A stretch of DNA of 64,000 nucleotides. Source: an uncultured Eubacteriales bacterium. Lineage in GTDB: Bacteria > Bacillota > Clostridia > Christensenellales > Aristaeellaceae. The stretch is from contig OMYT01000010.1 of assembly GCA_900315315.1 (NCBI GenBank), positions 25,673 to 89,672 on the forward strand, in the 5' to 3' direction. Below, one piece after another: positions 7,441 through 56,086 of the stretch. The translations under genes were made by a program, and so were the position numbers. How positions within the stretch are numbered: position 1 is the stretch's first letter; each line of letters begins with the position of its first letter. The notes beneath the pieces were generated by a model. It was not told the origin of the DNA. It saw only the letters and a list, made by a program, of their open reading frames with translations, and made no database searches.

Positions 7441-10134
7441 ATGCTTGATTTTCTGAAGAAGGTGCTGGGGAACGGGAACGATACCCAGCTGAAGAAACTG
7501 GAAAAACCCGTCGGGGCCGTGATGGCGCTCGAGAACGAATACAGGAAGCTGACGGACGAGCAGCTGCAGGCAAAGACGGCTGAATTCAAAACGCGGCTGG
7601 CAAACGGGGAGACGGAAGACGACCTGCTGCCCGAGGCCTTTGCCACGGTGCGGGAGGCGGCGGACCGGGTGCTGGGCATGCGGCCGTACCGCGTTCAGGT
7701 GCTGGGCGGTATCGTGCTGCACCAGGGCCGGATTGCCGAGATGAAGACCGGCGAAGGCAAAACGCTGGTTTCCACGATGCCCGCGTACCTGAACGCCCTG
7801 CGGGGCGAAGGCGTCCACATCGTGACGGTGAACGACTACCTGGCCCGTCGGGACAGCGAATGGATGGGCAAGGTGCACCGGTTCCTGGGCCTGAGCGTGG
7901 GCCTGATCGTCCACGACCTGGACAGCGCGGAGCGGCAGAAGGCCTATGCCTGCGACATCACCTACGGGACGAATAACGAGCTGGGCTTCGACTATCTGCG
8001 GGACAACATGGTGATCCGGCAGAGCAACCTGGTGCAGCGGGGCCACGCGTTCGCAATCGTGGACGAGGTGGACAGCATCCTGATCGACGAAGCCCGGACG
8101 CCGCTGATCATCTCCGGCCAGGGCGAAAAGAGCACGGAGCTGTATGACCGGGTGGACGCCGTGGTCCGGACGATGAAACCGGGCGTCCACTTTGAGGTGG
8201 AAGAGAAGAAGAAGGCCGTGACCCTTACGGACGAGGGCGCCCAGAAGGTTGAGACGGCTTTCAGCATCGACAACATCAACGATCCGGAGAACAGCGAGCT
8301 GAACCACCACGTGAACTGCGCGCTGCGGGCGCATAACCTGATGAAGCGCGACGTGGACTACGTGGTGCAGAACGGCCAGGTGATTATCGTGGACGAGTTC
8401 ACCGGCCGCCTGATGATCGGCCGCCGGTATTCGGAAGGCCTGCACCAGGCCATCGAGGCGAAGGAGCACGTCAAGGTTGAGCGGGAAAGCAAGACCCTGG
8501 CCACGATCACATTCCAGAACTACTTCCGGATGTATAAAAAACTTTCCGGCATGACCGGTACGGCAAAGACGGAAGAGGCCGAGTTCCAGGGCATCTACGC
8601 GCTGGACGTGGTGGAGATTCCGACGAACAAGCCGAACATCCGCAACGACCTGGAAGACATGGTCTACAAGAACAAGAATGCGAAGTTCAACGCCGTAGTG
8701 ACCAGCATTGAAGAGCGCCACAAAACGGGCCAGCCGCTGCTGGTCGGCACGATCAGCGTGGAAGTCAGCGAGATGCTGAGCGACATGCTCAAGCGCAGGG
8801 GAATTCCGCACGAAGTGCTGAACGCCAAGAACCACGCGAAGGAAGCGGAGATCGTGGCACAGGCCGGCCACTGGGGCGCGGTGACCATCGCGACGAACAT
8901 GGCGGGCCGCGGCACGGACATCCTGCTGGGCGGCAATCCCGAATATCTGGCCCGGAAGGCGCTGCGGCAGGAAGGCATCGACGAGGAGATTATCGAAGAG
9001 GCTGTCGGCCACAGCGAACAGGTGAGCGAGGAAGTGCTGGAAGCGCGGAAGCTGTACAACGAACAGTACAACCGCTTCAAGGCCGAGACGGACAAGGAAC
9101 ACGAGCGGGTGCTGCAGACCGGCGGACTGCACATCATCGGCACGGAACGGCACGAGAGCCGCCGGATCGACAACCAGCTGCGGGGCCGGAGCGCCCGGCA
9201 GGGCGACCCGGGTTCCACCCAGTTCTTTATCAGCCTGGAGGATGACCTGATGCGCCTGTTCGGCAGCGACCGGATCGGCACGATGGTGGACCGGCTGGGC
9301 CTGAAGGACGACGAGCCGCTGACGGCCGGGCTGCTGACCAAGCAGATCGAGAGCGCCCAGAAGCGGATTGAGAGCCGGAACTACGAGACCCGGAAACACG
9401 TGCTGGAATATGACGACGTGATGAACCGCCAGCGCGAAGTGATCTACGGACAGCGCAGGCGCGTGCTGATGGGCGAGAACGTCCGGGACAGCATCCAGCG
9501 CATGGCAGACCACGTGATCGACTTTGCCGCCGGCCGATGGATGACCGGGGAGGACGCGGAAGAGTGGGAGTGGCGGGAAGCCACCAACTATCTGGAAAAC
9601 CTGTGCAACCACCACGGCGTGCTGGAAGAGAACCGGAAGCTGGCTGAAGAAGAGAACCGCGAAGGCTTTATCGAAGCGCTGAAGGAGGACGCAAAGGCGT
9701 TCTACGAAGAGCGGGAGAAAATGATCAGCGATATGCAGATCGATATGCGCGAGGTGGAGCGGGTGATGCTGCTGCGCAGCGTAGACAGCCGGTGGATGGA
9801 CCACATCGACGCAATGGACCAGCTGCGGGACGGCATCGGATACCGTGCATACAGCGGAAAGAACCCGGTGACAGAATACCAGATCGAAGCCGGGCACATG
9901 TTTGAGGAACTGAACCACCTGATCCGGGAGGATACGGTCAGACGGGTGTATCAGACCAAGATCCAGGTGACGCCGGAACGGGTGCAAGCCGCGAAGCCTA
10001 CGGAAGCCCGGATAGCCGGGGATGGGCCGCGGCAGCCCCGGAAAGTGAGTGCTTCTGCCAAGATTGGCAGAAACGATCCGTGTCCATGTGGGAGCGGGAA
10101 GAAGTATAAGAATTGCTGTATGAATAAGGAATAA
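7441..10134 (+). CDS. secA: preprotein translocase ATPase SecA
   Basis: SecA is the motor ATPase that drives unfolded preproteins through SecYEG at the cell membrane. The 897-residue length is usual. The first ATPase domain has MKTGEGKT near residue 101 and [16 protein letters not shown] near 208. The second domain, the preprotein cross-linking and helical scaffold regions follow, ending in the SEC-C zinc motif [13 protein letters not shown]. The start is ATG 7441 (GGTAAGGAG upstream); a GTG 39 nt earlier is in frame but lacks a ribosome site. Its TAA stop abuts a structured intergenic element, and its last bases are duplicated downstream. Confidence 0.97.
10093..10113 (+). repeat. direct repeat, secA 3' end, copy 1
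   Basis: The 21 bp beginning AGCGGGAAGAAGTATAAG code for part of the SecA zinc tail. An identical copy lies at 10222-10242. Confidence 0.85.
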
Positions 10135-10173
10135 GGGGGCTTTCCGATCGCCCCCTTAGACCCCTTCGGGTCC
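10132..10173 (+). repeat. intergenic GGGGGC-TTTCCG element, copy 1 (short form)
   Basis: TAAGGGGGCTTTCCGATCG is followed by CCCCC and a GACCCCTTCGGGTC tail. The TAA is the secA stop codon. GGGGGC pairs with GCCCCC, and GACCC pairs with GGGTC. Confidence 0.85.
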
Positions 10174-10221
10174 TGTGGGGAAGAGCAGGAAGAAAGAACC
10201 TCCTTCGGGTCCGTTGAGGAA

Positions 10222-10242
10222 AGCGGGAAGAAGTATAAGAAT
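10222..10242 (+). repeat. direct repeat, secA 3' end, copy 2 (non-coding)
   Basis: This is a perfect 21-bp copy of 10093-10113 located after the secA stop. It is followed at 10249-10267 by ATAAGGGAACCCCTTCGGA, which looks like the intergenic element with its hairpin deleted. The pair records a tandem duplication of the secA end plus its element, followed by decay. Confidence 0.8.
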
Positions 10243-10280
10243 ACAAGGATAAGGGAACCCCTTCGGAGGAGATATAGGAT

Positions 10281-11381
10281 ATGCTGGAACTGGAACAATA
10301 CGCGCAGGATATTACAGGGATCCGCAAGAGCATTCTGGCGGCCGGCGAGGCGCTGCACATCGATCACATCAAGGAACAGATTGATGAACTGACGGAAGAG
10401 ATGAACCAGCCGGAATTCTGGAACGACACGGACCGTTCCACAAAGGTGAACCAGAAGCTGGGTCACCTGAAGAACAAGCTGGAACACTATGAGCACCTGC
10501 TGGCTGCCGCGGACGACATCGACACCATGATGGAACTCGCCAAGGAAGAGAACGACGAGGAAATGGTGGCGGAGATCGGCGAAGAGATGGCGAAGCTGAA
10601 GGAGCAGGCGGACGCGCTGGAACTGGAAACCCTGATGCGGGGCGACTATGACGACAGCGACGCGGTGCTGAGCCTGCATGCCGGCGCCGGCGGAACGGAA
10701 GCCCAGGACTGGACGCAAATGCTGTACCGGATGTACACCCGCTACTGCGAGCGGATGGGCTTCCAGGTGAAACTGCTGGACCTGCTGGACGGGGATGAGG
10801 CCGGAATCAAGAGCGTGACCTTTGAAGTCAGCGGAGACCACGCGTATGGCTATCTGCGGGGAGAGAAGGGCGTGCACCGGCTGGTTCGGATCAGTCCGTT
10901 TGACTCCAACGCCCGGCGGCATACCAGTTTCTCCAGCCTGGACGTGGCACCGATGCTGGAGGACGACGGGGATGAGATCAAGATCGACATGAAGGACGTG
11001 CGGGTGGATACCTACCACTCCAGCGGCGCCGGCGGTCAGAACGTCAACAAGACCAGCTCCGCCGTGCGGATGACCCACTATCCCACCGGAATCGTGGTGG
11101 CATGCCAGACGGAACGGGATCAGGTGCAGAACCGCGCAACCTGTTTGAAAATGCTGAAGGCGAAGCTGCTGGAACTGCGGGAACGCGAGAAGGAACAGCA
11201 GATGGCGGATATCAAGGGCGAGATGAAGAAGATCGAATGGGGAAGCCAGATCCGGTCTTACGTGTTCCAGCCCTATACGATGGTGAAGGATCACCGGACG
11301 AATTACGAGAGCGGCAATATTGACGACGTGATGAACGGGAATCTTGAGGGATTCGTTACCGCATACCTCAAGATGCAATGA
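10281..11381 (+). CDS. prfB: peptide chain release factor 2
   Basis: RF2 recognises UAA and UGA and triggers peptide release on the ribosome. The 366-residue protein shows the stop-codon reading tripeptide in RISPFDSNARRHTSF and the catalytic GGQ in SGAGGQNVNKTSSAV. The start ATG is preceded by GGAGGAG. The whole protein lies in one frame: the programmed +1 frameshift with an early UGA, which autoregulates many bacterial prfB genes, is absent. The stop overlaps the next start (ATGA), so the downstream membrane protein is translationally coupled. Confidence 0.96.
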   Translation: MLELEQYAQDITGIRKSILAAGEALHIDHIKEQIDELTEEMNQPEFWNDTDRSTKVNQKLGHLKNKLEHYEHLLAAADDIDTMMELAKEENDEEMVAEIGEEMAKLKEQADALELETLMRGDYDDSDAVLSLHAGAGGTEAQDWTQMLYRMYTRYCERMGFQVKLLDLLDGDEAGIKSVTFEVSGDHAYGYLRGEKGVHRLVRISPFDSNARRHTSFSSLDVAPMLEDDGDEIKIDMKDVRVDTYHSSGAGGQNVNKTSSAVRMTHYPTGIVVACQTERDQVQNRATCLKMLKAKLLELREREKEQQMADIKGEMKKIEWGSQIRSYVFQPYTMVKDHRTNYESGNIDDVMNGNLEGFVTAYLKMQ

Positions 11382-12058
11382 AAGCTGCGGGAATCATACT
11401 CGCCTGGGCGGTGATTCTTTTCACGGTGGCGGCGGCGGTATGCGGGATTGCCGGGAACGGCGGACTGCTGGCGTCGGAGATGCTGAGGAACGCGCCGCCG
11501 GAGGTTACCGGGCTGCCGGAGAAGGAATATGAGGCCGTGGGGCGGATGACGGCGGACTACCTGAGCGGACGGACGGACGTGTTCCAGCACACGTTTTCGG
11601 ATGAGAACGGCACGATTTACCAGTGCTTTCAGCCCCATGAGGCGGAGCATATGGCGGACTGCCGGAAACTGATCCGACTGGCGGAGATCCTGAGACTGGT
11701 GTTCTGGTTGCTCGGGATGATGATCGTGATTGCGGGAATCCTGATGCCGAAAAGACGGAAAGGGATTGCCCGGGGCGTAATCATCGGACTTGTGTCAGCG
11801 GGGGCTGTCGGGACGGTGCTCCTGATCTGGGGTGTGATCGATTTTGACGGACTTTTCACGGCGTTTCACCGGATCGCGTTTACGAACGACGGGTGGCTGC
11901 TGGATCCGCGGACGGATCTGCTGATCCGGCTGATGCCGACGGAACTGTTTATCAGGCTTGCAGCCCGAATCCTGCTTTGGGTGATGGGGGCAGCAATCGT
12001 TATGGCGATTGTTGCAAGAGTAATATATAGGGGGGCTTTCCGATCGAATCCAACGTAA
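11378..12058 (+). CDS. DUF1461 integral membrane protein
   Basis: This 226-residue protein has an N-terminal membrane helix, an extracytoplasmic domain of about 100 residues and three further helices, with the family motif FHRIAFTNDGWLLDP and then LIRLMP. This is the layout of the TIGR01906/DUF1461 family, whose function is unknown. It overlaps prfB by 4 nt. The last ten residues (RGAFRSNPT before the stop) are encoded by the 5' box of an intergenic element, so the original C-terminus may have been replaced by read-through into that element. Confidence 0.8.
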   Translation: MKAAGIILAWAVILFTVAAAVCGIAGNGGLLASEMLRNAPPEVTGLPEKEYEAVGRMTADYLSGRTDVFQHTFSDENGTIYQCFQPHEAEHMADCRKLIRLAEILRLVFWLLGMMIVIAGILMPKRRKGIARGVIIGLVSAGAVGTVLLIWGVIDFDGLFTAFHRIAFTNDGWLLDPRTDLLIRLMPTELFIRLAARILLWVMGAAIVMAIVARVIYRGAFRSNPT

Positions 12059-12096
12059 GCGCCACTGGCGCTTACGCCCCCAAACCCCTTCGGCCG
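12030..12096 (+). repeat. intergenic GGGGGC-TTTCCG element, copy 2 (with internal hairpin)
   Basis: GGGGGGCTTTCCGATCG opens the element and CCCCCAAACCCCTTCGG closes it. Between them lies a perfect 9-bp hairpin (GTAAGCGCC, loop ACT, GGCGCTTAC). The first 29 bases are translated as the end of the DUF1461 protein. Confidence 0.85.
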
Positions 12097-13217: not shown

Positions 13218-13224
13218 GCAGGCC

Positions 13225-14382
13225 GTGAAGGAAAAACTCCAATTCTGGAACCAGTACGGGTTTGAGATGGATGTCTTCGACAAGTACCGTGACTCGGTCA
13301 CAAGAAGCAACCGGGTGGCAATCAAGGTGTTCAGCTCTCTGGTGCTTGTCATCACAATAGTGATCATTATCTTCGGACTTATCACCCATCAGCCGCTGGC
13401 AGGTGCGGTATTTTGCGGTATATCGCTGATTGCCGGCATTTACAGCATGCGCATCACCTTCCGGGAGGAAAGCACAAGGAAGAAAATCCTGACAGCGGGT
13501 TATTTCCTGTGCATCGCGACCTATATGCTGTCCATTTACGGATCCTATTCGTTCCGGACCGATGTGTTCTGGGTTGGGACGCTGGTGGCAGTGGGATGTT
13601 ACATTTTTGACTACGCATGGCGGGTGGGCCTTTTACAGATTGCCAGCTATGCTGCGATGATGCTGGTTTGGAATATGGCGGGTACCGAGCTGAACGCCAT
13701 TCGGATTATTTTCAGCAGTATCTATCTGCTGATCAGCCTGGTGACGATCTACGCACTGAATCGGTCAAGAGTAAAGCTGATCGCGGGGCAGCAGCAGAGC
13801 CAGTACCAGGCGGATACGGACCTGCTGACCGGGCTGACGATGCGGACGGCCGCGCAGAAACAGATTGAGGAACACCTGAAGACGGACGAGCATGGCGTGA
13901 TGATGCTGTTGGACCTGGACCGTTTCAAGAGCGTGAATGACCGGCTGGGTCACCAAATGGGTGATGCAGTGTTGATTGATGTGGCGGCTGACCTGAAGCG
14001 GATGTTCCGGAACAGTGACGTGCTGAGCCGGCTGGGCGGCGACGAATTTGTGGTCTATATGAACAGTGTGCCGGAGAAAGAATGGGCACAGCAACGAGCC
14101 AGCCACGTGGTGCGTGCGGTACGCCGGTGGGTCGGCAACGGGACAACAAATATCCAGATCACAGCAAGCGTAGGTATTGTGATGACCGACATGGTGGAAC
14201 GAAACTACGACGAGCTTTACAGAGCAGCGGATATCGCGATGTATGCGGCCAAGAGCCAGGGCGGAAACCGGGCGCTGTTCTATTCGCCTGAGATGCTGGA
14301 ACACGCGCAGGAAATGGAAGATCAGCGGCATCTGACCAGCGAAAAGGTCAAGAGTGAAGAAGAGATGAGCGAGTTGAGATAA
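13225..14382 (+). CDS. membrane-bound GGDEF diguanylate cyclase
   Basis: This 385-residue protein has about six membrane helices in its N-terminal half, without an extracellular sensor domain, and a C-terminal GGDEF domain. The active-site GGDEF is intact near residue 271 (RLGGDEFVVYM), preceded by LLDLDRFKSVND and followed by ITASVGIV and ADIAMYAAKSQG. It should make cyclic di-GMP from two GTP. I see no RxxD inhibitory site five residues upstream. The start is GTG, 7 nt after tsaD. A structured element abuts its TAA. Confidence 0.88.
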   Translation: MKEKLQFWNQYGFEMDVFDKYRDSVTRSNRVAIKVFSSLVLVITIVIIIFGLITHQPLAGAVFCGISLIAGIYSMRITFREESTRKKILTAGYFLCIATYMLSIYGSYSFRTDVFWVGTLVAVGCYIFDYAWRVGLLQIASYAAMMLVWNMAGTELNAIRIIFSSIYLLISLVTIYALNRSRVKLIAGQQQSQYQADTDLLTGLTMRTAAQKQIEEHLKTDEHGVMMLLDLDRFKSVNDRLGHQMGDAVLIDVAADLKRMFRNSDVLSRLGGDEFVVYMNSVPEKEWAQQRASHVVRAVRRWVGNGTTNIQITASVGIVMTDMVERNYDELYRAADIAMYAAKSQGGNRALFYSPEMLEHAQEMEDQRHLTSEKVKSEEEMSELR

Positions 14383-14418
14383 GGGGGCTTTCCGGTCGCC
14401 CCCAAACCCCTTCGGCCG
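14380..14418 (+). repeat. intergenic GGGGGC-TTTCCG element, copy 3 (short form)
   Basis: TAAGGGGGCTTTCCGGTCG is followed by CCCCCAAACCCCTTCGG. The TAA is the stop codon of the GGDEF gene. Confidence 0.85.
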
Positions 14419-14480
14419 AATTGCGTTAGTTTAGACCTTCGGACGAATAAAACAAGTTTGTTGGATGATTAAAAATATTT

Positions 14481-22237: not shown

Positions 22238-22278
22238 GGGGGGCTTTCCGATCGCCCCCCAAACCCCCTTCGGTTCGG
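22238..22278 (+). repeat. intergenic GGGGGC-TTTCCG element, copy 4 (short form)
   Basis: GGGGGGCTTTCCGATCG is followed by CCCCCCAAACCCCCTTCGG and TTCGG. It starts 5 nt after the phosphofructokinase stop and lies just upstream of a separate intrinsic terminator, so termination is not the element's only possible role. Confidence 0.85.
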
Positions 22279-24653: not shown

Positions 24654-24666
24654 GGGGGGCTTTCCG
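24654..24666 (+). repeat. intergenic GGGGGC-TTTCCG element, copy 5 (5' half only)
   Basis: GGGGGGCTTTCCG lies 6 nt after a stop codon, and then the sequence switches directly into a different dispersed repeat at 24669. The 3' box is missing, so this copy looks truncated by insertion. Confidence 0.65.
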
Positions 24667-24668
24667 AA

Positions 24669-24715
24669 CCTCGGGATGACACGGAGGAGATCCCTCGACT
24701 TCGCTCGGGATGACA
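24669..24715 (+). repeat. dispersed REP-like repeat (GAGATCC-CGGGATGACA type)
   Basis: CCTCGGGATGACACGG is followed by AGATCCCTCGACTTCGCTC and GGGATGACAT; the CGGGATGAC motif occurs twice. A relative of it (GAGATCCTTCACTGCGTTC then AGGATGACACGG) is found inside mfd at 29298-29331. Confidence 0.6.
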
Positions 24716-24775
24716 TAGTTTGCATGTGCGGAAACAAAAAAAGAAAAGAGTCGTTTCCTATATTCTGGCAAAACG

Positions 24776-27735: not shown

Positions 27736-27827
27736 GTGGGGGCTTTCCGCAAGGAATCGCACGCGCACCGCGGCCGGTGTGCCGGCTCGCGCACCGCGCG
27801 CGACATCGCCCAACCCCTTCGGCCGGG
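27736..27827 (+). repeat. intergenic GGGGGC-TTTCCG element, copy 6 (long form)
   Basis: GGGGGCTTTCCG opens 2-4 nt after the pth stop, and CCCAACCCCTTCGGCCGGG closes it. The 70-nt interior holds a GCCGG-TGTG-CCGGC hairpin flanked by two copies of CGCACCGCG. Confidence 0.8.
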
Positions 27828-41857: not shown

Positions 41858-41893
41858 GTGGGGGCTTTCCGATCGCCCCCACACCCCTTCGGT
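41858..41893 (+). repeat. intergenic GGGGGC-TTTCCG element, copy 7 (short form, opposite to flanking genes)
   Basis: GTGGGGGCTTTCCGATCG is followed by CCCCCACACCCCTTCGG. Both neighbours (lysC and the rfbD-like gene) are on the minus strand, so this copy is antisense to their transcript. Confidence 0.8.
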
Positions 41894-47884: not shown

Positions 47885-48124
47885 GTGAAGTCTGTTATGA
47901 TCCGACTGAGCCTTGTGGAGAATGTCAATAAGTTTGTGAATATTGTAGCGCGCTATCCGTTTGAAATGGATCTGCGGGCAGGGCGCCACGTGGTGGATGC
48001 CAAATCGATTCTGGGCATTTTTTCACTGGATTTGAGCAAACCGATTGCACTGGAGATTTACGGGGACGACTGCGAAGAACTGCTGAAGGAAATTTCTCCT
48101 TTCATTGCAGCAGAAGCAGAATAA
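47885..48124 (+). CDS. HPr-like protein without the phosphorylatable histidine
   Basis: This 79-residue protein aligns along its length with HPr of the sugar phosphotransferase system. The Ser46 helix is kept (AKSILGIFSLDL), but the active-site region is LVENVNKFVNIVARY where HPr has IHARPA, so His15 is lost. It cannot pass phosphate to sugar transporters; like Bacillus Crh it may act only as a regulator or structural homolog. The GTG start follows a strong AAGGAGGTG. It is monocistronic, with its own promoter, structured element and terminator. Confidence 0.82.
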   Translation: MKSVMIRLSLVENVNKFVNIVARYPFEMDLRAGRHVVDAKSILGIFSLDLSKPIALEIYGDDCEELLKEISPFIAAEAE

Positions 48125-48225
48125 GGGGGCTTTCCGAGTGCCCAGGGCTTCCGCCCGTTCTTCGTTGAAAAAGAGCCACTGGCTCTTTTTCCGAGCACTC
48201 AGAACCCCCCTAAAACCCCTTCGGC
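48122..48225 (+). repeat. intergenic GGGGGC-TTTCCG element, copy 8 (long, three-stem form)
   Basis: TAAGGGGGCTTTCCGAGTGC pairs imperfectly with GAGCACTCAGAACCCCCC. Inside are a GGGC-TTCC-GCCC hairpin and a 10-bp hairpin (AAAAAGAGCC, loop ACT, GGCTCTTTTT). The tail is AAAACCCCTTCGGC. The TAA is the stop of the HPr-like gene. Confidence 0.88.
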
Positions 48226-48262
48226 TGCATGAAGGAAAGGAAGAATAAGAGAGCTTCGGATA

Positions 48263-48289
48263 CCTGCCGTTTTTCGGCAGGTTTTTTTG
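48263..48289 (+). terminator. intrinsic terminator of the HPr-like gene
   Basis: CCTGCCG and CGGCAGG pair around TTTT and are followed by seven T. Confidence 0.92.
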
Positions 48290-48300
48290 TTGGAAAATAA

Positions 48301-48386
48301 AAATCCGAACGATAGATGAGAAAATGCTTTCAATCATTCGTGTTTTGTGATAAAATATCCGACTAAGGGGCATCCCCCGAACGATC
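48301..48386 (+). promoter_or_regulatory. purR promoter with PurBox-like operators
   Basis: AAATCCGAACGAT (48301-48313) closely matches the PurR target AWWWCCGAACWWT. A second CCCGAACGAT lies at about 48376-48385, and an inverted weaker copy at 48334-48345. They surround TTTCAA (48328) - 17 bp - TAAAAT (48351). Autoregulation by PurR is the natural reading. Confidence 0.7.
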
Positions 48387-48419
48387 CGCTGATCAGGCAG
48401 AATCAAGGAGATATGAGAC

Positions 48420-49235
48420 ATGGACAGGATCCGCCGGAATGAACGTATGACCGCAATGATGAAGCTTTTATCGGGTACGCCGAACAGAATCTTTACACTC
48501 AGCAGCTTTTGTGAGATGTTCGGTTCTGCCAAATCGACCATGAGTGAGGATGTCGATCTGCTGCAGCAGGTGACGAAAGCGTTTGACCTGGGTGAAGTGG
48601 ATACGGTGACCGGTGCTGCAGGCGGCGTGCGTTACCGGCCGACGGTGAGTCGGGCAAAGGCCAGGGCATATATCGAGGAATTATGCGGAAAGCTGAGCGG
48701 CAGTGAAAGGGTTCTGCCCGGGGATTTTCTGTATTACAGCGATATTCTCAGTACGCCGGAGATCGTAAATCGGATGGGAGAAATTATTGCAACAGAATAT
48801 TATGCGACGGAACCGGATTTTGTTTTGACCATGGAGACCAAGGGAATTCCGGTGGCATTTGCTACAGCCAATGCGCTCGGGGTGCCGCTGGTGATTGCCA
48901 GGCATTTTTCCCGGGTGTATGAAGGTTCGGCGGTGAACATCAATTATGTTTCAGGAAGCGGTAATATCGAAACCATGAGCTTAAGCCGCAGGGCGGTGAA
49001 AGAGAACCAGCGGGCGCTGATCGTTGATGATTTCCTGAAAGGCGGCGGTACGGCACGGGGCATGGTGGAACTGATGAGGGAATTTAATGTCAGCGTGGTC
49101 GGGATGGCATTTGTCATGGCGACGGCCGCTCCCGAAAAGAAGAGAGTTACGGGAGAAAAGGCGCTTATGACGTTGGAGATCATCGCGGGGGAACCGACAA
49201 AGGCAATTGTAAAACCGGCTGAATGGCTTAAGTAA
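48420..49235 (+). CDS. purR: purine operon regulator PurR (PRTase type)
   Basis: This 271-residue protein has an N-terminal winged helix (about 1-75) and a phosphoribosyltransferase-like domain with the PRPP loop ALIVDDFLKGGGTARG, as in Bacillus PurR. PurR binds paired PurBoxes and senses PRPP to control purine genes. AAGGAG lies ahead of ATG 48420. PurBox-like sites sit in its own promoter. Its TAA abuts a structured element. Confidence 0.94.
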   Translation: MDRIRRNERMTAMMKLLSGTPNRIFTLSSFCEMFGSAKSTMSEDVDLLQQVTKAFDLGEVDTVTGAAGGVRYRPTVSRAKARAYIEELCGKLSGSERVLPGDFLYYSDILSTPEIVNRMGEIIATEYYATEPDFVLTMETKGIPVAFATANALGVPLVIARHFSRVYEGSAVNINYVSGSGNIETMSLSRRAVKENQRALIVDDFLKGGGTARGMVELMREFNVSVVGMAFVMATAAPEKKRVTGEKALMTLEIIAGEPTKAIVKPAEWLK

Positions 49236-49273
49236 GGGGGGCTTTCCGATTGCCCCCTTGAACCCCTTCGGTT
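49233..49273 (+). repeat. intergenic GGGGGC-TTTCCG element, copy 9 (short form)
   Basis: TAAGGGGGGCTTTCCGATTG is followed by CCCCCTTGAACCCCTTCGGTT. The TAA is the purR stop codon. Confidence 0.85.
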
Positions 49274-49301
49274 GCATTATCATGAAAGATCATGATATAA
49301 T
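49272..49301 (+). promoter_or_regulatory. promoter of the HlyD-like gene
   Basis: TTGCAT (49272-49277) and TATAAT (49296-49301) are 18 bp apart, so the transcript should start near 49308 with a leader that contains a CGCGGCT-TC-AGCCGCG hairpin and element copy 10. Confidence 0.65.
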
Positions 49302-49333
49302 CTAATGTTGAGATTTCGCGGCTTCAGCCGCGA

Positions 49334-49422
49334 CCAGGGCTTTCCGAGTGCCCAGGGCTGCCGCCCGTTCCTTACTGAAAACGGGCACACCGGCCCGTTT
49401 TCCGGGCGTGCGGAACCCCTGG
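49334..49422 (+). repeat. intergenic GGGGGC-TTTCCG element, copy 10 (long, three-stem form, in an mRNA leader)
   Basis: CCAGGGCTTTCCGAGTGCCC pairs with GGGCGTGCGGAACCCCTGG. The interior has a GGGC-TGCC-GCCC hairpin and a 9-bp hairpin AAAACGGGC/GCCCGTTTT. It shares about 30 near-identical bases with copy 8, but its stem sequences differ while pairing is kept. The ACCCCTTCGG tail is absent. Confidence 0.8.
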
Positions 49423-49472
49423 ACCAGCCGCCGCAGCCGGTTCAGATGCCGCCGCAGCCGGAGAACAAGCGG

Positions 49473-50645
49473 ATGAGCGTTCCGCAGATTATGCTGATCG
49501 TACTGGTGCTGGGTTTTGCCGCCTGGTATCTTGTGACGACGCTGACCCCTCAGGCAGCACCCTATGCCACGATTACGGCGGGAGTGATGGGCGCCCGGTA
49601 TGAGGGGGACTGCCTCATCGTGCGGGATGAGACGCCTTTTGACGCCGAAGGCGTGACCAGTGTTGACTATATTGCGGAAGAAGGAAGCTGGGTTACCCGG
49701 GGAACCACGATCTGCAACGTCTACTCATCGGGTTTCAGTACGAGAGAGATGACGGCGCTGCAGGACTACCGGGATCAAATCAAGGAATACCAGATGAAAC
49801 TTCTGAAGGCCCAGGTGACAACAGATTCCTATATGGAAAAACTGGAAGCGGACGTCATGACCCGGGCCCGGGAAGTACGGGAGCTGATCGGCGGCGCGCG
49901 CGGAAACATGAACAATCAGGAAACCCTGCTGGCCGCAGCGATTCAGAGCCGGCAGAACCGGCTGAAGGAAATGTACAGCGAAGACCAGCGCATGACCCGA
50001 CTGTATGACGATGAACTGAGCCAGCTGCAGCGGATTTCCAGCTGGACCAAACAGTATGCTGCAACGGGAGACGGTCTCGTGAGTTTCTACAGCGACGGAT
50101 ACGAATACGGGCTGACCGTGACGAATTACGATCAGTTTACGCCGGGTGAAGTCCGGGCGATGCTGAACGGGAAAAAGCCGACGGACGATCTGACAGGGAA
50201 GGGCAAGACGACGATTTACCGCCTGATCCGCGAAGGACACTGGATCGTTCTGATGCTGATCAGGGACAGCAACTGGAATCCGGTGGAAGGTGCGGTTTAT
50301 GAACTGAAACTGGAGAACTTCAAGGATACGATGGTGGACGCCCGGGTGCTGAGCTTCACCCGGACAGGCGGGGAACTGCTGGTACGCCTTGACGTGAACA
50401 GCGAGGTTGAACCGGTTCTGTATGTCCGGACCTGTACGGGCGTGCTCGGGGACAGCGTAGCAAGCCTGACGGTGCCGGAAAGAGCGCTGTATTACCAGGA
50501 CAATATGCCGGGTGTTGTCGTGGTGGACGGAGATTACCAGTTCTTTATCCCGGTGAATGTGATGGATAAACGCGACGGGATGATTTTTATTTCGGCTATA
50601 CAGCAGGGAGTGCTGTATGAGGGGCAGACAGTGAGACTATTTTAG
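49473..50645 (+). CDS. HlyD-like membrane fusion protein
   Basis: One N-terminal membrane helix (IMLIVLVLGFAAWYLVTTL) is followed by a beta-barrel/biotinyl-lipoyl-like half, a long coiled coil (about 95-190) and a second beta region, the build of HlyD/MFP-type proteins. No partner transporter is adjacent. The start is uncertain: ATG 49473 has GGAG 9 nt upstream, while ATG 49446 and an open frame back to 49305 would add a PPQP-rich segment and residues encoded by element copy 10. With the promoter TSS near 49308, the 49305 ATG cannot be used from that transcript. Confidence 0.7.
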   Translation: MSVPQIMLIVLVLGFAAWYLVTTLTPQAAPYATITAGVMGARYEGDCLIVRDETPFDAEGVTSVDYIAEEGSWVTRGTTICNVYSSGFSTREMTALQDYRDQIKEYQMKLLKAQVTTDSYMEKLEADVMTRAREVRELIGGARGNMNNQETLLAAAIQSRQNRLKEMYSEDQRMTRLYDDELSQLQRISSWTKQYAATGDGLVSFYSDGYEYGLTVTNYDQFTPGEVRAMLNGKKPTDDLTGKGKTTIYRLIREGHWIVLMLIRDSNWNPVEGAVYELKLENFKDTMVDARVLSFTRTGGELLVRLDVNSEVEPVLYVRTCTGVLGDSVASLTVPERALYYQDNMPGVVVVDGDYQFFIPVNVMDKRDGMIFISAIQQGVLYEGQTVRLF

Positions 50646-50687
50646 GGGGCTTTCCGGTTGCTCCCCTTAAACCCCCTTCGGGTTCGG
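50643..50687 (+). repeat. intergenic GGGGGC-TTTCCG element, copy 11 (short form)
   Basis: TAGGGGGCTTTCCGGTTG is followed by CTCCCCTTAAACCCCCTTCGG and GTTCGG. The TAG stop of the HlyD-like gene overlaps the G run, and AACCC/GGGTT can pair in the tail. Confidence 0.85.
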
Positions 50688-50745
50688 CTTATGTTTGCTT
50701 CAGGAAAAGAGTTTGAGGGACAGCAACAGAGAGAGAAGGAAGACA

Positions 50746-51432
50746 ATGACCCGGGAAGAGCTTGAGCAAAGAGTGGAGCAGGTCCGGCGGGAACTGGAGA
50801 TTGCCGCGGATGGCCGGTGGCCGGTACCGAAACTGATTGCTGTGACAAAAACTCACAGTGCGGAGGAAATCCTGCCGCTGAAGGAGATCGGGGTGACTGA
50901 GATCGGGGAAAACCGGGTTCAGGAACTGAAGACAAAATTGCCGGAACTGCAGGGCTGCTTCGGGATTCACCTGATCGGAAGGCTTCAGCGCAACAAAGTC
51001 AGGCAAATCATCAATGATGTATGCATGATCCAGTCAGTGGACAGTATTCCGCTGGCTGAAGAGATCCACGCGCGCGCTCTGGCAGCTGAAAAGCAAATGC
51101 CTGTGCTGGTGGAGGTCAGCCCGGCGGGCGAGGAGCAGAAAGGCGGCGTTCCCTTTGAGGAAACGGAAACTTTTCTGAATCAGATTGCGAAACTGGACGG
51201 GATCCGGGTCCGCGGCCTGATGGCGGTCATGCCGCTGACAGACGACGAAGAATATCTGGACGGACTTTTCGCGAAGACGCGGGAGCTGTTTGACAGGCTG
51301 AAGGAGAGAAGCCTGAACGGAATCGGGATGGAAGAACTCAGCATGGGTATGTCGGGGGATTACCGCCTGGCCGCTGCCCACGGGGCGACCATGGTCCGGG
51401 TCGGCAGTGCAATCTTCGGGCCCCGTAACTGA
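50746..51432 (+). CDS. yggS: YggS/YlmE-family PLP-binding protein
   Basis: This 228-residue PLP homeostasis protein has the alanine-racemase-like barrel: the PLP lysine in LIAVTKTHSAEEI, GENRVQEL, HLIGRLQRNKVRQI and SMGMSGDYRLAAAHGATMVRVGSAIFG. I start at ATG 50746, behind AGAAGGAAG. It begins the yggS-sepF-divIVA cluster typical of Firmicutes (ylmE-sepF-divIVA), with 27 nt to sepF. Confidence 0.94.
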   Translation: MTREELEQRVEQVRRELEIAADGRWPVPKLIAVTKTHSAEEILPLKEIGVTEIGENRVQELKTKLPELQGCFGIHLIGRLQRNKVRQIINDVCMIQSVDSIPLAEEIHARALAAEKQMPVLVEVSPAGEEQKGGVPFEETETFLNQIAKLDGIRVRGLMAVMPLTDDEEYLDGLFAKTRELFDRLKERSLNGIGMEELSMGMSGDYRLAAAHGATMVRVGSAIFGPRN

Positions 51433-52326: not shown

Positions 52327-52345
52327 TTAAAGGAGGGAGAGGCAC

Positions 52346-52813
52346 ATGGAACGGATCACTGCGGACGTGATCGCGGAAAAGGAGTTTTCCATCGAATCCA
52401 AGGGCTACAGCAAGAACGAGGTGGATAATTTTCTGGATGAGATCTGCGAGGAAATGGACCGGCTGAACAACGAGATCTTTGATCTTCGCCAGAAGACGAC
52501 CATGGTACGGCCCCAGGCCCCTGCGGAGAACGCTCCGACAGGAGCCGAGGAAAGCCGTTTCCGGGAAATCCTGGAAATGGCGGCCCAGGTGAAGGAGGAG
52601 ACGATCCGCCGGGCAAAAGAGGATGCGGAAGCGATCCGGATGAAAGCCGAAACAGAGGCGACTGAACGCCTGGAAGGCCTTGAGGCGGAGCGGGATGATC
52701 TGAAGACGGAGATTGAGAACCTGAAACAGACGGCGGCGGATTACCGCCGGAAGTTTGAAGAACTGCTGCATGCGCAGCAGGAGGCGCTGGAGAAAGCAAC
52801 AGGGTTGTTTTGA
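52346..52813 (+). CDS. divIVA: DivIVA-family cell division/polarity protein
   Basis: The 155-residue protein opens with the DivIVA membrane-binding domain (DVIAEKEFSIESKGYSKNEV, then DNFLDEICEEMD) and continues as coiled coil to the end. It binds curved membrane at poles and septa. AGGAGGGAG precedes the ATG. The ylmG and ylmH genes that usually lie between sepF and divIVA are missing. Confidence 0.93.
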   Translation: MERITADVIAEKEFSIESKGYSKNEVDNFLDEICEEMDRLNNEIFDLRQKTTMVRPQAPAENAPTGAEESRFREILEMAAQVKEETIRRAKEDAEAIRMKAETEATERLEGLEAERDDLKTEIENLKQTAADYRRKFEELLHAQQEALEKATGLF

Positions 52814-52842
52814 TGATGTGAGAAATGAGGGAAAGATAGATT

Positions 52843-53733
52843 ATGTTCGGACACAGAGCGGACGGAAAAAGACTCAGGCATCTGGACCCGATTATCCAGA
52901 TTACGCCGTATCTGATGCCGATGCGCTGCGACGCGCAGGTGTTTCTGGAACATAAGGTGGACTATGAAAAGCTGGCCAGATACATCGCGGAAAAGAACCG
53001 GCAGGGTGAGAAAATCACTTTCATGCAGATTCTTGTGGCCGGGTATGTCCGGGCGATCAGCCAGAATCCGGCGGTGAACCGGTTCATCTTCAACAAACAG
53101 TACTATGCGCGGAACAACTGTTCCGTATCGTACGCGGTCCTGAAGGATCCGCAGGATAACGAGAGCAAAGAGACGACGGTGCAGATCCGGTTTGACCTGA
53201 CGGACACGCTGTTCGACGTGCGCGACCGGATGAACGACGCAGTGGAAAAAGCCCGCGCCACGGAAGACGGTGATTTTGTGATCAAACTCGCAAAAGCAGT
53301 CCTGAAAATCCCCGGCCTTCCGACTTTGATCGTGGCCCTGTACAAACTGCTGGACCGGTACGGAATCGCCCCGAAGTTCATCGTGAAAGGGCTGCCGTTC
53401 TACAGCGGCATGTTTATAACAAACAACGCATCTATCGGCCTGAGCCATCCGCTGCATCATATCTACAATTTCGGCGACGTCAGCCTGTTTATCGGAATGG
53501 GAAACGTCGTCAAAGAAGCGGCAACGGATAGCGAAGGCAACATCCGGATGAAACGGTGGCTGCCTCTGGGGCTGACCGCTGACGAGCGGGTGTGCTCCGG
53601 GGCGCACTATGCGAAGTTCTTTGCAGATGCGACCAGGAATTTCGGGAATCCGGAGCTGCTTGAGCAGCCGCCGGAACAGGTGTTCTTCGACGAAGGCGTC
53701 GAATATCACGTTCCGAAAATCAAAAAAGCATAA
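52843..53733 (+). CDS. 2-oxoacid dehydrogenase acyltransferase-like protein, degenerate active site
   Basis: The 296 residues match the catalytic domain of E2 acyltransferases without lipoyl or E1-binding domains (FMQILVAGYVRAISQNP, then ITNNASIGL). The catalytic HxxxDG segment reads DERVCSGAHYAKFF: the His is Glu and the Asp is Ser. Classical CoA-dependent acyl transfer is therefore unlikely. It follows divIVA by 29 nt, so it may be part of the division operon. Function unknown. Confidence 0.78.
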   Translation: MFGHRADGKRLRHLDPIIQITPYLMPMRCDAQVFLEHKVDYEKLARYIAEKNRQGEKITFMQILVAGYVRAISQNPAVNRFIFNKQYYARNNCSVSYAVLKDPQDNESKETTVQIRFDLTDTLFDVRDRMNDAVEKARATEDGDFVIKLAKAVLKIPGLPTLIVALYKLLDRYGIAPKFIVKGLPFYSGMFITNNASIGLSHPLHHIYNFGDVSLFIGMGNVVKEAATDSEGNIRMKRWLPLGLTADERVCSGAHYAKFFADATRNFGNPELLEQPPEQVFFDEGVEYHVPKIKKA

Positions 53734-53739
53734 AGGGAA

Positions 53740-53958
53740 TTAATCTTCCGGATCCACATAGTATTTTCCATCGGGTGTTTTGCCGATTACATCCATATCT
53801 GCCAGTTGATCTGTATACTCCTGAAACTGGTCCGGGTTTTCCAGGTCCGTTTCGGATAAGGCTTTTGCCGATTTCGGACTCTGTGCACCTGCTTTTTGGA
53901 GCGCTTCGATGATGAGCTTTTTCCGCAGAGACAGTGCTGAAGATGTGAAAACTGCCAT
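53740..53958 (-). CDS. small protein of unknown function
   Basis: This 72-residue acidic protein starts MAVFTSSALSLRKKLIIEAL behind a strong AAGGAGG. It has three predicted helices and a terminal hairpin (MDVIGKTPDGKYYVDPED), which would fit a small winged helix. The stop lies 6 nt from the stop of the convergent gene. Not recognised. Confidence 0.7.
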   Translation of the reverse strand: MAVFTSSALSLRKKLIIEALQKAGAQSPKSAKALSETDLENPDQFQEYTDQLADMDVIGKTPDGKYYVDPED

Positions 53959-54080
53959 ATGTTCTCCTCCTTGTTTTCCAGGCAATATCCTCTGTTTAGC
54001 ATATCATAAATCGACGCTTTAGGGAACAGGTTTTTAAAAATATGGGCTGCGTCCGCGAACACAGAATTGACGGGAGTGAG

Positions 54081-54181
54081 TGAAAGATGAAAAAACTGCT
54101 GATTGTTATTCTGTGCCTGTGCCTTTGTCTGCCGGCCGCCTTTGCGGAGGAATCCGCGGAAAGCAAAAGCAATATCGGGAT
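54081..54181 (+). repeat. duplicated signal-peptide cassette, copy 1
   Basis: About 100 bp covering the TGAAAG leader, the start codon and the first 30 or so codons is nearly identical to 54916-55016. Differences are mostly silent. Confidence 0.9.
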
Positions 54182-54779
54182 CGTCTCTGCGACGGGAGCG
54201 GAGGACTTAGACGAAACCGGAGCCGCGATTCCCGCCGGGACCGGGTTCAGCTATGAACATGATCCGCGGGACAATCCCAAAGCCATGCGCGATATTGTGG
54301 TGAACCCGGAGGCGGTATACGGGTTTTCCCCCAGCACGGAAGACGGATCCACGCTGAAGGATTACGCGAACGCCCTTGACTGGACTGACCCGGAACAGGT
54401 GGCCGAGGCCAGGGAAACACGGCAGGCGTATCACGACAGCATGTCCGAACTGTACGATATAATGCTCTCCATGGTCCAGGAGGACAAGGACGTGGAGACG
54501 ATCGCCAGAGCGGTCAGCAAGCGCCGGAACGAACTGCGCCTGGAGGCTGAGAAGGACAATCCGGAAGCGCTGGCGCTGGTCAGGAAGAGAAACCTCGAAA
54601 CATATGGAAATGAAGAAGGCCCGACGGCGGATGACCTGCTCCAGAAGTACGGCTCCTGGGATATGGTGCTGTACAAGGCGCTGGGAACCAACGCGGGGAT
54701 GGATGCCTGCCTGGGATTTTACGACGAATATTACTATCTGTACGATCTGGAAAACGAGATCGGAGCAGCAGATGAATGA
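54087..54779 (+). CDS. secreted protein with a borrowed signal peptide, function unknown
   Basis: The first 34 residues (MKKLLIVILCLCLCLPAAFA, EESAESKS, then IGIVSA) match the N-terminus of the exported nucleosidase at 54922, including the first residues of its catalytic domain. After IGIVSA the sequence changes to an unrelated, acidic, mostly helical 190-residue domain (SKRRNELRLEAEKDNPEALA, then LETYGNEEGPTADDLLQKYG and GMDACLGFYDEYYYLYD). Related domains may occur in other Clostridia, but I know no function. The join suggests recombination at the duplicated cassette. Confidence 0.75.
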   Translation: MKKLLIVILCLCLCLPAAFAEESAESKSNIGIVSATGAEDLDETGAAIPAGTGFSYEHDPRDNPKAMRDIVVNPEAVYGFSPSTEDGSTLKDYANALDWTDPEQVAEARETRQAYHDSMSELYDIMLSMVQEDKDVETIARAVSKRRNELRLEAEKDNPEALALVRKRNLETYGNEEGPTADDLLQKYGSWDMVLYKALGTNAGMDACLGFYDEYYYLYDLENEIGAADE

Positions 54780-54915
54780 AAACAATCCGGGCGGCTCAGG
54801 CCCGGATTGAACGGGGAAGAATCCTGCATTGTCGGTTTTTGCGCTTTGTGGTAAGATTCACAAAGGAAGCAGATTCATTGACTGCATCCGGAAATACAAA
54901 GACGACAGGAGCGTG

Positions 54916-55016
54916 TGAAAGATGAAAAAACTGCTGATTGTTATTCTGTGCCTGTGCCTTTGCCTGCCGGCTGCCTTCGCAGAGGAAACAGCGGAAAGCA
55001 AAAGCAGAATCGGGAT
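54916..55016 (+). repeat. duplicated signal-peptide cassette, copy 2
   Basis: This is the nearly identical partner of 54081-54181, 835 bp downstream. Similarity begins a few bases before the ribosome binding region and ends soon after the signal peptide. Confidence 0.9.
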
Positions 55017-55713
55017 TATCTCCGCGATGGAGAATGAGGTGAAGCTGCTTCTTTCCGAGGCGGAGATCGAGCGGACTGATACGATCGGCGGCGTGAACTT
55101 TCATGTCGGCACGCTTTGCGGCCAGAATGTGGTGATTGCCAAGGCGGGCATCGGGAAGGTCCTTTCCGCCGCCGGCACAGCGACGATGCTGAACCGGTAT
55201 CCGGTTTCTTACCTGATATTCACCGGCATTGCCGGGGGCGTCGGGGATGAAACGAAGGTGATGGACATGGTGATCGGCACAAAGCTGGTGCAGCATGATT
55301 ACGGAAATCAGAACCAGGACGGATTTGAATGGTCTTCCGCCTACAACGAAGCCGACGGATACTATACCTGCGACGATGACCTGGTCAGACTGGCTTATGA
55401 GGCAGCGAAGGAAGTTGTCGGCGAAAAGCATGTCTTCAAAGGCGTGATTGCCACAGGAGACCAGTTCGTTGCTTCCGGGACTTATGTAAAATATCTTCAG
55501 GATCAGTTTGATGCTCTGGCCTGCGAGATGGAAGGCGCGTCTGTGGCCGCCGTGTGTGAACAGTTCGGGATTCCTTATGTCATCATCCGCTGCATGTCGG
55601 ATAAAGCAGACGGAAAAGCATATGAAACATATGAGAACTTCGGCGATACAGCTGCGGACAACTCCGGCCGGATTGTCAGGAAGATGCTGAAAGGCCTGGA
55701 AGGGAAACAATAA
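54922..55713 (+). CDS. exported MTA/SAH nucleosidase-like protein
   Basis: The mature domain is a full-length 5'-methylthioadenosine/S-adenosylhomocysteine nucleosidase: IGIISAMENEVKLLL with the catalytic Glu, AGIGKVLSAAGTATML, FTGIAGGVGD, the purine-binding ALACEMEGASVAAVC and IIRCMSDKAD with the catalytic Asp. Unlike the usual cytosolic enzyme it carries a signal peptide ending AAFAEE and no lipobox. It would act outside the membrane on nucleosides. The gene stands alone 142 nt after its cassette-sharing neighbour. Confidence 0.88.
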   Translation: MKKLLIVILCLCLCLPAAFAEETAESKSRIGIISAMENEVKLLLSEAEIERTDTIGGVNFHVGTLCGQNVVIAKAGIGKVLSAAGTATMLNRYPVSYLIFTGIAGGVGDETKVMDMVIGTKLVQHDYGNQNQDGFEWSSAYNEADGYYTCDDDLVRLAYEAAKEVVGEKHVFKGVIATGDQFVASGTYVKYLQDQFDALACEMEGASVAAVCEQFGIPYVIIRCMSDKADGKAYETYENFGDTAADNSGRIVRKMLKGLEGKQ

Positions 55714-55758
55714 TGACCATATTTTATTAGACATTGCGTAAAATGTATGATAGTATTT

Positions 55759-55785
55759 AACGTCCCGATTCAGGGACGTTATTTT
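55759..55785 (+). terminator. hairpin after the nucleosidase gene
   Basis: AACGTCCC and GGGACGTT form a perfect 8-bp stem followed by ATTTTG. The next gene's ribosome binding site (CAGGAGGA) follows at once, so it may also affect translation. Confidence 0.6.
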
Positions 55786-55801
55786 GCAGGAGGAAATGAA
55801 A

Positions 55802-56038
55802 ATGGAAGAGTTTAAAAAGAATCCGGTTCTGATGGGCATCGCGAGCGCTGCAGGCTGCGCGCTGATACTGCTGGCCATCGACTTTGTGCTTGGTCTGGTT
55901 ACCAAAAAACCCTTTGCTGACAGGATCAGCGATCCGATCAGCATTGCCATCCTGATCATCGGACCCATTGCCTGCGGGATTTCGACCTGGAAAAAGGTGA
56001 AGGAAAAGGCTGAAGGCAAGGAAAAGAAGGAACTGTAA
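55802..56038 (+). CDS. small two-helix membrane protein
   Basis: This 78-residue protein has two membrane helices (VLMGIASAAGCALILLAID and ISIAILIIGPIACGIS) and a Lys/Glu-rich tail. ATG 55802 is chosen for CAGGAGGA upstream; an earlier in-frame ATG lacks one. Not recognised. A structured element follows its stop. Confidence 0.65.
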   Translation: MEEFKKNPVLMGIASAAGCALILLAIDFVLGLVTKKPFADRISDPISIAILIIGPIACGISTWKKVKEKAEGKEKKEL

Positions 56039-56042
56039 TTCA

Positions 56043-56086
56043 GGGGCTTTCCGGGCGCTGCGAACCCCTTACCCCCTTCGGCCCGG
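56043..56086 (+). repeat. intergenic GGGGGC-TTTCCG element, copy 12 (variant)
   Basis: AGGGGCTTTCCGGGCGC pairs with TGCGAACCCC, and the ACCCCCTTCGG tail follows. It starts 4 nt after a stop codon and has a shorter G run than most copies. Confidence 0.75.

What the first reader, a model, noticed from the sequence alone, without database searches (positions are those of the whole stretch)
10132..56086. Twelve-copy family of structured intergenic elements, not recognised
A motif beginning (TAA)GGGGGCTTTCCG and ending ACCCCTTCGG recurs at 10132, 12030, 14380, 22238, 24654 (half), 27736, 41858, 48122, 49233, 49334 (no tail), 50643 and 56043. The G run pairs with a C run in each full copy, the TTTCCG and CTTCGG boxes are nearly invariant, and the interior is variable. 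All copies are on the same strand. This density (12 in 46 kb) and the fixed boxes fit a structured RNA placed at mRNA ends or a non-autonomous mobile palindrome.
Basis: seen in the sequence. Interest (0 to 1): 0.85.

Follow-up and report, generated by a model that had tools for sequence, protein, structure and literature searches.

The report
Capped triplex-forming DNA repeat family
A short DNA repeat, scattered between genes in rumen and gut Clostridia and their phages, keeps the base pattern of a three-stranded DNA knot, and in some genomes always points the way replication runs, so it looks like a small mobile DNA element rather than an RNA signal.

Summary
In detail: twelve places, all on +, ten with both boxes; the own genome holds 172 exact GGGGGCTTTCCG, reversed control 0. 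Anatomy: purine arm, C, loop TTTCCGATC, G, pyrimidine arm, third arm, TTCGG. Three couplings hold across copies: the arms covary; loop CCG pairs with the terminal CGG, including a double swap to GCG/CGC (105 of 109 listed, of 439 found); the third arm mirrors the purine arm in the G.GC/A.AT/T.AT code of a purine-motif DNA triplex on the complementary strand (564 of 613 positions, shuffles 465+-7). It is a capped intrastrand-triplex repeat, of the kind of E. coli PIT/BoxC but with other order, loop and cap. Direction follows GC skew, not genes: 117 of 117 copies, genes 476 of 643; likewise in G112 and, with one doubtful copy, G091; not in G024 or G219. Phage operons carry copies. Best reading: a non-autonomous mobile DNA repeat entering through fork single strands. 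The enzyme is unknown; resident Y1 transposases are not linked. Triplex formation and insertion are inferred, not measured. Not a known Rfam RNA, nor a terminator.

The parts
10132..10169 (+). short element; lower stem TAA (the stop codon of secA) pairs TTA; arm GGGGGC, loop TTTCCGATC, arm GCCCCC, third arm ACCCC, TTCGG
12031..12093 (+). long element; loop enlarged by a hairpin GTAAGCGCCACTGGCGCTTAC; third arm ACCCC, TTCGG; overlaps the called end (12058) of the gene before it
14380..14415 (+). short element directly after the TAA stop of a GGDEF protein gene
22239..22273 (+). short element, arm of six G and third arm of five C; a separate terminator-like hairpin with a T-run follows it
24655..24666 (+). 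left half only, running into an unrelated sequence (CGGGATGACA type)
27738..27822 (+). long element of type B (CAAGGAATCGCACGCGCACCGCGG... palindrome inside)
41858..41892 (+). short element between two minus-strand genes (RmlD-like, and amino-acid kinase/ACT); key case against gene-strand orientation
48122..48224 (+). long element of type A (inner hairpin GAAAAAGAGCCACTGGCTCTTTTTC), first three bases a TAA
49233..49271 (+). short element at the TAA stop (49233-49235) of a purine-repressor-like gene
49333..49425 (+). long element of type A preceded by the hairpin module TTTCGCGGCTTCAGCCGCGA, without the terminal TTCGG
50643..50681 (+). short element at the stop of a HlyD-like gene
56042..56081 (+). 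variant element (AGGGG arm, ACCCCC third arm, TTCGG)

Best explanation
The copies belong to a DNA repeat family whose conserved property is a single-strand fold: a hairpin whose purine arm is also matched by a third arm, with the end of the third arm locked to the hairpin loop by a short Watson-Crick cap (CCG/CGG, or GCG/CGC). The code fits the purine-motif triplex on the complementary strand (order: cap, third arm, purine arm, loop with cap partner, pyrimidine arm). The repeat carries no gene and would be moved in trans. Inferred: in this genome and two relatives it enters DNA through single-stranded lagging-strand template at the fork, which fixes its direction relative to replication whatever the genes do. 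Also inferred: the lower stem, whose left half can be host sequence such as a TAA stop codon, helps choose the site by pairing; and phages of the same hosts carry it between hosts. Shown here: hairpin, cap and third-arm couplings, copy numbers, polarity to GC skew, presence in phage operons, difference between species at the same sites. Not shown: that the triplex forms, the ssDNA route, pairing-guided targeting, or transposition itself.
For: Hairpin and cap: 62 distinct 37-nt copies, 12 pairs, 93.5% of cells paired (shuffles 81.7+-0.7), 83 cells changed on both sides (22.3+-3.5), covariation 0.328 against 0.010-0.179 when slid. Cap among 81 distinct 37-mers: CCG/CGG 56, GCG/CGC 14, CCA/TGG 1, against GCG/CGG 2, CCG/CGC 1 and 7 others; loop GCG ends in TTCGC in 105 and TTCGG in 4 of 109 listed matches (of 439 counted, 23 of 308 family genomes). 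Triplex code: 124 distinct third-arm strings from 415 copies; facing G gives C 461 of 485; facing A gives A or T 103 of 128; interior A gives T 15, A 11, C 4, G 1; 564 of 613 positions fit, 5000 shuffles 464.9+-7.2, highest 494; of 74 informative arms 0 fit Watson-Crick pairing with the purine arm, 42 the purine motif throughout, 6 the pyrimidine motif. Polarity: 117 of 117 intergenic copies on the skew-positive strand on contigs with skew of at least 0.05, genes 476 of 643; G112 19 of 19 short copies with clear skew; in G091 the elements are minus at 0.6-1.7 Mb (skew negative) and plus at 1.85-2.37 Mb (skew positive). Mobility: patchy numbers; at 11 window sites compared, G112 has no element at 8 and a different one at 3; copies in terminase/portal and tail operons of phage contigs. 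Site: 24 of 25 copies lying 0-3 nt after an upstream stop adjoin TAA, against 313 of 644 complete stops of called genes.
Against: No triplex was measured; E. coli BoxC folds in vitro but in-cell footprinting did not show it (PMC4666352). Syntenic comparisons (86 for G000 copies, counting self matches, and 12 for G112 copies) gave no exact empty site; the nearest, L017 15659 against G112, leaves 4 and 14 bases unaligned. GC skew stands in for replication direction. Polarity is absent in G024 (12 agree, 13 disagree, 95 with low skew), mixed in the other named assemblies on 8-kb stretches (29 agree, 15 disagree outside G024) and in phage contigs (44 agree, 10 disagree, 7 low), and broken in G219 (three of three on one stretch against the skew, five mixed on another). 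One G091 copy near 2.41 Mb is minus at local skew -0.016. No transposase is linked: none of 25 Y1 loci has a two-box element within about 1.5 kb, though one G112 locus has a left box alone, and G024, with 149 copies, has no Y1 match. Basal A facing A may partly be a fixed linker. Alleles are related, so shuffles overstate independence. Short-loop sister hairpins gave no clear mirror signal.
Confidence: 0.58

Rival explanations
1. A structured RNA at mRNA 3' ends: the + strand transcript folds as an H-type pseudoknot and protects or processes the message.
For: 92 of 119 intergenic copies follow a same-strand gene, 25 of them within 0-3 nt of its stop; hairpin and cap covary, which would serve an RNA equally well.
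Against: 15 copies lie between two opposite-strand genes and 11 more have the upstream gene opposite, and all keep the skew-positive strand; A opposite A does not fit an RNA triplex; no Rfam match at gathering score.
Confidence: 0.15
2. Same capped triplex, but polarity comes from loss: copies whose triplex-forming strand lies in the lagging-strand template block or slip during replication and are deleted, so only one direction survives.
For: Strict polarity: taking GC skew as guide, the strand that fits the purine code is never the lagging-strand template among these 117 copies; triplex repeats of E. coli sit in unstable intergenic regions (PMC4666352).
Against: G024 and G219 keep both directions, as do inverted pairs in G024 and G008; E. 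coli BoxC shows no strand bias.
Confidence: 0.17
3. A REP/REPIN-like element moved by a RAYT (Y1) transposase.
For: Short palindromic intergenic repeat, many copies, inverted pairs in G024; all 8 tested same-genus genomes have a Y1 match.
Against: None of 25 Y1 loci has a two-box element nearby (one has a left box alone); the four Y1 loci examined for palindromes carry other ones; G024, G008 and G033 have copies but no Y1 match.
Confidence: 0.1

Closest known systems
PIT / BoxC / TMECO intrastrand triplex repeats of E. coli and other bacteria (Holder et al. 2015, PMC4666352)
   Same: Intergenic, many copies, purine arm, pyrimidine arm and third purine arm in one strand with G.GC, A.AT and T.AT triplets; inverted pairs of two subtypes (here in G024); copy number differs sharply between relatives.
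   Different: Arm order is that of their class I, not class II; 9-nt loop (their finder allows 1-6) and short arms; a Watson-Crick cap joins third arm and loop; fixed boxes; strict polarity to GC skew in three genomes, where TMECO has no strand bias; copies found in phage operons.
REP / REPIN elements with RAYT transposases (partly recalled)
   Same: Short extragenic palindromes, many copies, non-autonomous, some inverted pairs.
   Different: No two-box copy near Y1 genes; third arm and cap; in the window genome, copies with one fixed direction.
IS200/IS605-type single-strand transposons and their small derivatives (recalled)
   Same: Subterminal hairpin, preference for one replication strand; pairing-guided target choice would match the lower stem.
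   Different: No Y1 transposase tied to the element; variable arms held together by a triplex code.

Membership tests
Intrastrand triplex repeats (PIT/BoxC kind) | third arm follows the triplex code of the purine arm in one strand | tested here: met
   564 of 613 positions, shuffles 464.9+-7.2
Intrastrand triplex repeats (PIT/BoxC kind) | finder limits of Holder et al.: stems 6-15, loops 1-6 | tested here: not met
   loop is 9 nt in the short type; limits read
Intrastrand triplex repeats (PIT/BoxC kind) | stable triplex of the oligonucleotide in vitro | not testable with these tools
   needs CD/NMR
TMECO itself | consensus CCCTCNCCC N3-6 GGGNGAGGG ... | tested here: not met
   0 matches to its first two arms in the window; not searched in the rest of the genome
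REP/RAYT | Y1 transposase gene flanked by the element | tested here: not met
   no two-box element at 25 Y1 loci, a left box alone at one G112 gene
REP/RAYT | inverted pairs | tested here: met
   met in G024; not the arrangement in the window genome
IS200/IS605-like single-strand mobile DNA | direction fixed by replication | tested here: met
   117 of 117 in G000 by GC skew, G112 and G091; not in G024 and G219
IS200/IS605-like single-strand mobile DNA | precise empty site without target duplication | tested here: inconclusive
   flanks too diverged between species
Rfam RNA family | match at gathering score | tested here: not met
   0 in the window; in 48000-50800 four matches below gathering score, best E 0.28, one of them over the 50645 copy
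Intrinsic terminator | T-run after the hairpin | tested here: not met
   6 of 122 copies

The most novel reading that the evidence does not exclude
A new kind of mobile single-strand DNA: its transposition signal is not a simple hairpin but a pseudoknot-capped purine-motif triplex, it chooses sites by pairing its lower stem with host bases such as TAA stop codons, it enters only lagging-strand template, and it is moved by an enzyme unrelated to the known Y1 transposases, with phages as carriers.
Probability: 0.2. Interest if true: 0.9.

Novelty: new variant of a known kind. Interest (0 to 1): 0.72.

Why it matters
Whether DNA triplexes matter in bacterial cells has been open since PIT elements were described. 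Here divergent copies keep the third arm, base by base, in step with the purine arm, together with a cap that swaps both bases at once: this is evolutionary evidence that the three-stranded fold itself is kept. The strict polarity in some genomes, independent of genes, gives a handle on how such repeats enter or survive in genomes.

Tried and rejected
RNA family: Rfam at gathering score found nothing in the window and only matches below gathering score in 48000-50800.

Terminator: a T-run follows 6 of 122 copies. RAYT/Y1: Y1 genes exist in the genus but carry no two-box element nearby; one G112 locus (L149, also L170) has a left box without the second. Third arm as an alternative Watson-Crick partner of the purine arm: 0 of 74 informative arms. 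Pyrimidine-motif triplex on the top strand: fails wherever A faces A. Exact empty sites: sought in G112 and other same-genus stretches, none exact. Mirror code in short-loop sister hairpins: in G024 168 of 391 against 149.3+-4.3 with shuffled tails, but 163 for the opposite register, so inconclusive; few hairpins in the other sets. A motif search of the paper library listed 14 papers with the letter strings, unrelated by title and abstract start; listings for triplex repeats, replication-oriented repeats and Clostridia repeats showed no description of this family. An ncbifam scan of Y1 proteins failed on coordinates and was not repeated. A script on alleles failed and was mended.

Corrected on recheck: an earlier count said G112 differs at 10 of 12 sites; the output shows 11 sites compared, 8 without and 3 with another element. 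The stop-codon count had included three gene calls overlapping the element; one search leaves them out.
Full report
Observation. The twelve places exist. GGGGGCTTTCCG is exact at 10 of 12, with one mismatch at 56042 and two at 49335; ten copies end in (A/C)CCCCTTCGG. All are on the + strand. The own genome (G000; 4,258,947 bases, 197 contigs) has 172 exact copies of the 12-mer and none of its reversal. A two-box pattern for the short type finds 163 in G000, 269 in G024, 34 in G112, 23 in G032, 10 in G064, 5 in G091, 3 in G423 of another family, and one each in six more: 13 of 396 genomes drawn from the order. Of 200 family genomes 103 have the 12-mer, mostly one or two copies, often no more than the reversed control.

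Anatomy. The short type is: lower stem, purine arm (usually GGGGG), C, loop TTTCCGATC, G, pyrimidine arm, lower stem, a short linker, third arm (usually CCCC), TTCGG. Of 122 two-box places in the fetched own-genome DNA, 87 are short and 35 long (a few may be chance matches in genes). Long copies keep both ends and carry an inner hairpin (type A, with GCCACTGGC-like loops) or a GC-rich palindrome (type B). The arms covary freely: TAAG/CTTA, CCAG/CTGG, GCGAG/CTCGC, TTGG/CCAA, TGTG/CACA.

Cap. The loop triplet CCG pairs with the terminal CGG. On 62 distinct 37-nt copies, hairpin plus cap gave 93.5% paired cells, and 83 cells changed on both sides against 22.3+-3.5 in shuffles; the sliding controls fall away on both sides. 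The 37-nt copies were chosen by the G-run, boxes and spacing, not by lower-stem or cap pairing, and thinned to those differing at two or more places (81 distinct to 62). Among the 81: CCG/CGG 56, GCG/CGC 14, CTG/CGG 3, GCG/CGG 2, and one each of CCA/TGG, CCG/CTG, CCG/TGA, CCG/CGA, CCG/CGC and CCT/CGG. A pattern allowing C or G as last base found loop GCG in 23 of 308 family genomes, 439 places in all; of the 109 listed, 105 end in TTCGC and 4 in TTCGG. The CCA/TGG copy is in G000 (L098).

Third arm. Its length and bases follow the purine arm. G-run and terminal C-run are rank-correlated at 0.89 over arms of the form A*G+. Over 124 distinct strings from 415 copies (all genomes and phage contigs fetched by then), a facing G has C in 461 of 485 cases and a facing A has A or T in 103 of 128 (A 83, T 20, G 14, C 11). 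Interior A has T 15, A 11, C 4, G 1. The same arm GGAGGG occurs with CCACC (9 copies) and CCTCC (5 copies). Shuffling third arms among arms of equal length gives 464.9+-7.2 fitting positions, at most 494 in 5000 shuffles; observed 564 of 613. Of 74 informative arms none fits Watson-Crick pairing of third and purine arms, 42 fit the purine motif throughout, 6 the pyrimidine motif. On the complementary strand this is G.GC with A.AT or T.AT, third arm antiparallel and at the 5' end: class I in the scheme of Holder et al. (PMC4666352; outline and parts 1-7 of 10 read). That paper states that purine-motif triplexes do not form in RNA and that the C-rich pyrimidine motif is more stable in acid. Hence I read the constraint as one on DNA. 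Basal A facing A could partly be a fixed linker; the interior positions are the cleaner test. Shared ancestry inflates these figures; the conclusion rests on the variety of arms.

Orientation. I called genes with a home-made hexamer model on 41 own-genome sources (window plus 40 stretches chosen around hits, about a fifth of the genome). Of 119 intergenic two-box places, 117 lie on contigs with GC skew of at least 0.05 in size, and all 117 are on the G-rich strand; genes of at least 150 bp on these contigs are 476 on that strand and 167 against (which left out the overlapping stretch L020). The other two are on contig C71, with skew -0.002. By neighbours: 67 same/same, 22 upstream same and downstream opposite, 15 opposite/opposite, 11 upstream opposite and downstream same, 2 with one neighbour missing. 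Six further two-box matches fall inside called genes: two are real type A copies overlapping a gene end, on the expected strand (L026, L084); four are chance matches without arms. In the window, 41860 lies between two minus genes with Pfam domains. In the single-contig chromosome G091 (20 stretches sampled) the skew turns from minus to plus between 1.72 and 1.85 Mb, and the elements turn with it; a + match at 1.7 Mb has no pyrimidine arm, and one element near 2.41 Mb is minus at skew -0.016. G112: 19 of 19 short copies on stretches with clear skew agree; a + match on its contig C4 is not an element. Against: G024 has 12 agreeing, 13 disagreeing and 95 undetermined; other named assemblies, on 8-kb stretches, 29 agreeing and 15 disagreeing; phage contigs 44, 10 and 7 with low skew. 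In G024 copies come as inverted pairs of a GGGGG and an AAAGGG subtype. G219, of the same genus, also breaks the rule. So polarity is strict in some genomes and not in the family at large.

Mobility. At 11 window sites that could be compared, G112 (about 89% identical in secA) has no element at eight and a different one at three: a GGAGG/CCTC copy at secA/prfB, a CCGGGGC copy with upstream hairpin module at the 22239 site, a type-B-like copy at the 24655 site; 56042 found no match. G204 has a TAAG copy at the secA site. No comparison gave an exact junction; the nearest leaves 4 and 14 bases unaligned. Tandem copies 50 or 58 bp apart occur (L028; C54). In IMG/VR, 49 stretches hold GGGCTTTCCGATCGCCC: 58 matches, 54 with TTCGG within 28 nt. 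On L323 a copy begins right after the stop of a terminase gene, before the portal gene; on L346 one lies between tape-measure and tail genes; L347 carries a capsid gene. Presence in phage or prophage DNA is therefore direct; that phages spread it is inference.

What moves it. Y1 transposases were the first suspect because of the polarity. Nine of 13 genomes tested have a Y1 match, including all eight of the genus tested; G024, G008, G033 and G035 have none. None of 25 Y1 loci has a two-box element within about 1.5 kb, though one G112 gene has a left box alone, and the four examined carry other palindromes. So the Y1 link is not supported and the enzyme remains unknown.

Site choice. Among 92 copies with a same-strand gene upstream, 25 lie 0-3 nt after its stop, and 24 of these stops are TAA; called genes have TAA 313, TGA 288, TAG 43. 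TAA is then the left half of the lower stem and TTA, often, the right half, so pairing-guided insertion is a natural reading. It is an inference: compensating change after insertion, or simple tolerance behind genes, is not excluded.

Known or new. Three features differ from the intrastrand triplex repeats described by Holder et al.: arm order, the cap, and polarity (TMECO: no strand bias). A 9-nt loop puts the family outside the published finder's limits. Searches of the held paper library, seen as listings, did not show it described; most subscription papers are not held, so this is not proof of absence. I rate it a new variant of a known kind. On recheck I lowered confidence slightly (0.60 to 0.58), because the mixed polarity in other assemblies and phages counts against a general fork route, and raised the purging rival to 0.17.

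Noticed in passing
L044 1280-1430 and 1900-2060; L056 1030-1160 (G024): Arrays of short-loop hairpins with a following C-run, e.g. GCAGGGGC-TCT-GCCCCTGC-ACCCC; a possible uncapped sister family, but the mirror test was inconclusive.
   Followed up: partly
window 24667-24720: A sequence with internal repeats (CGGGATGACA ... CTTCGCTCGGGATGACA) joins the left half element; its nature was not tested.
   Followed up: no
window 10257-10266 and 14434-14442: Orphan third boxes (ACCCCTTCGG, GACCTTCGG) downstream of full copies, perhaps remains of older copies.
   Followed up: no
window 49300-49334; L019 near 17020; G024 and G033 copies: A hairpin module TTTCGC...GCGACC(A/C) precedes many CCAGGG/CCAAAGGG copies in several genera.
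   Followed up: partly
L078 15450 (G112) against L013 13885-13917 (G000): Orthologous spacer with a similar left flank holds a long type B copy in one species and a short copy in the other, as if inner parts are exchanged.
   Followed up: no
L028 9716-9816; G000:C54 4126-4300: Tandem arrays of the element with 50-bp and 58-bp periods.
   Followed up: no
L150, L154, L162: Y1 transposase genes of the genus have palindromes of their own nearby (e.g. TGGACACTGGGGAC), perhaps a separate repeat system.
   Followed up: partly
window 50644-50684: A full-length but sub-threshold Rfam match to PhotoRC-I RNA (17.4 bits, gathering 45, E 0.28) over the 50645 copy; taken as chance.
   Followed up: no
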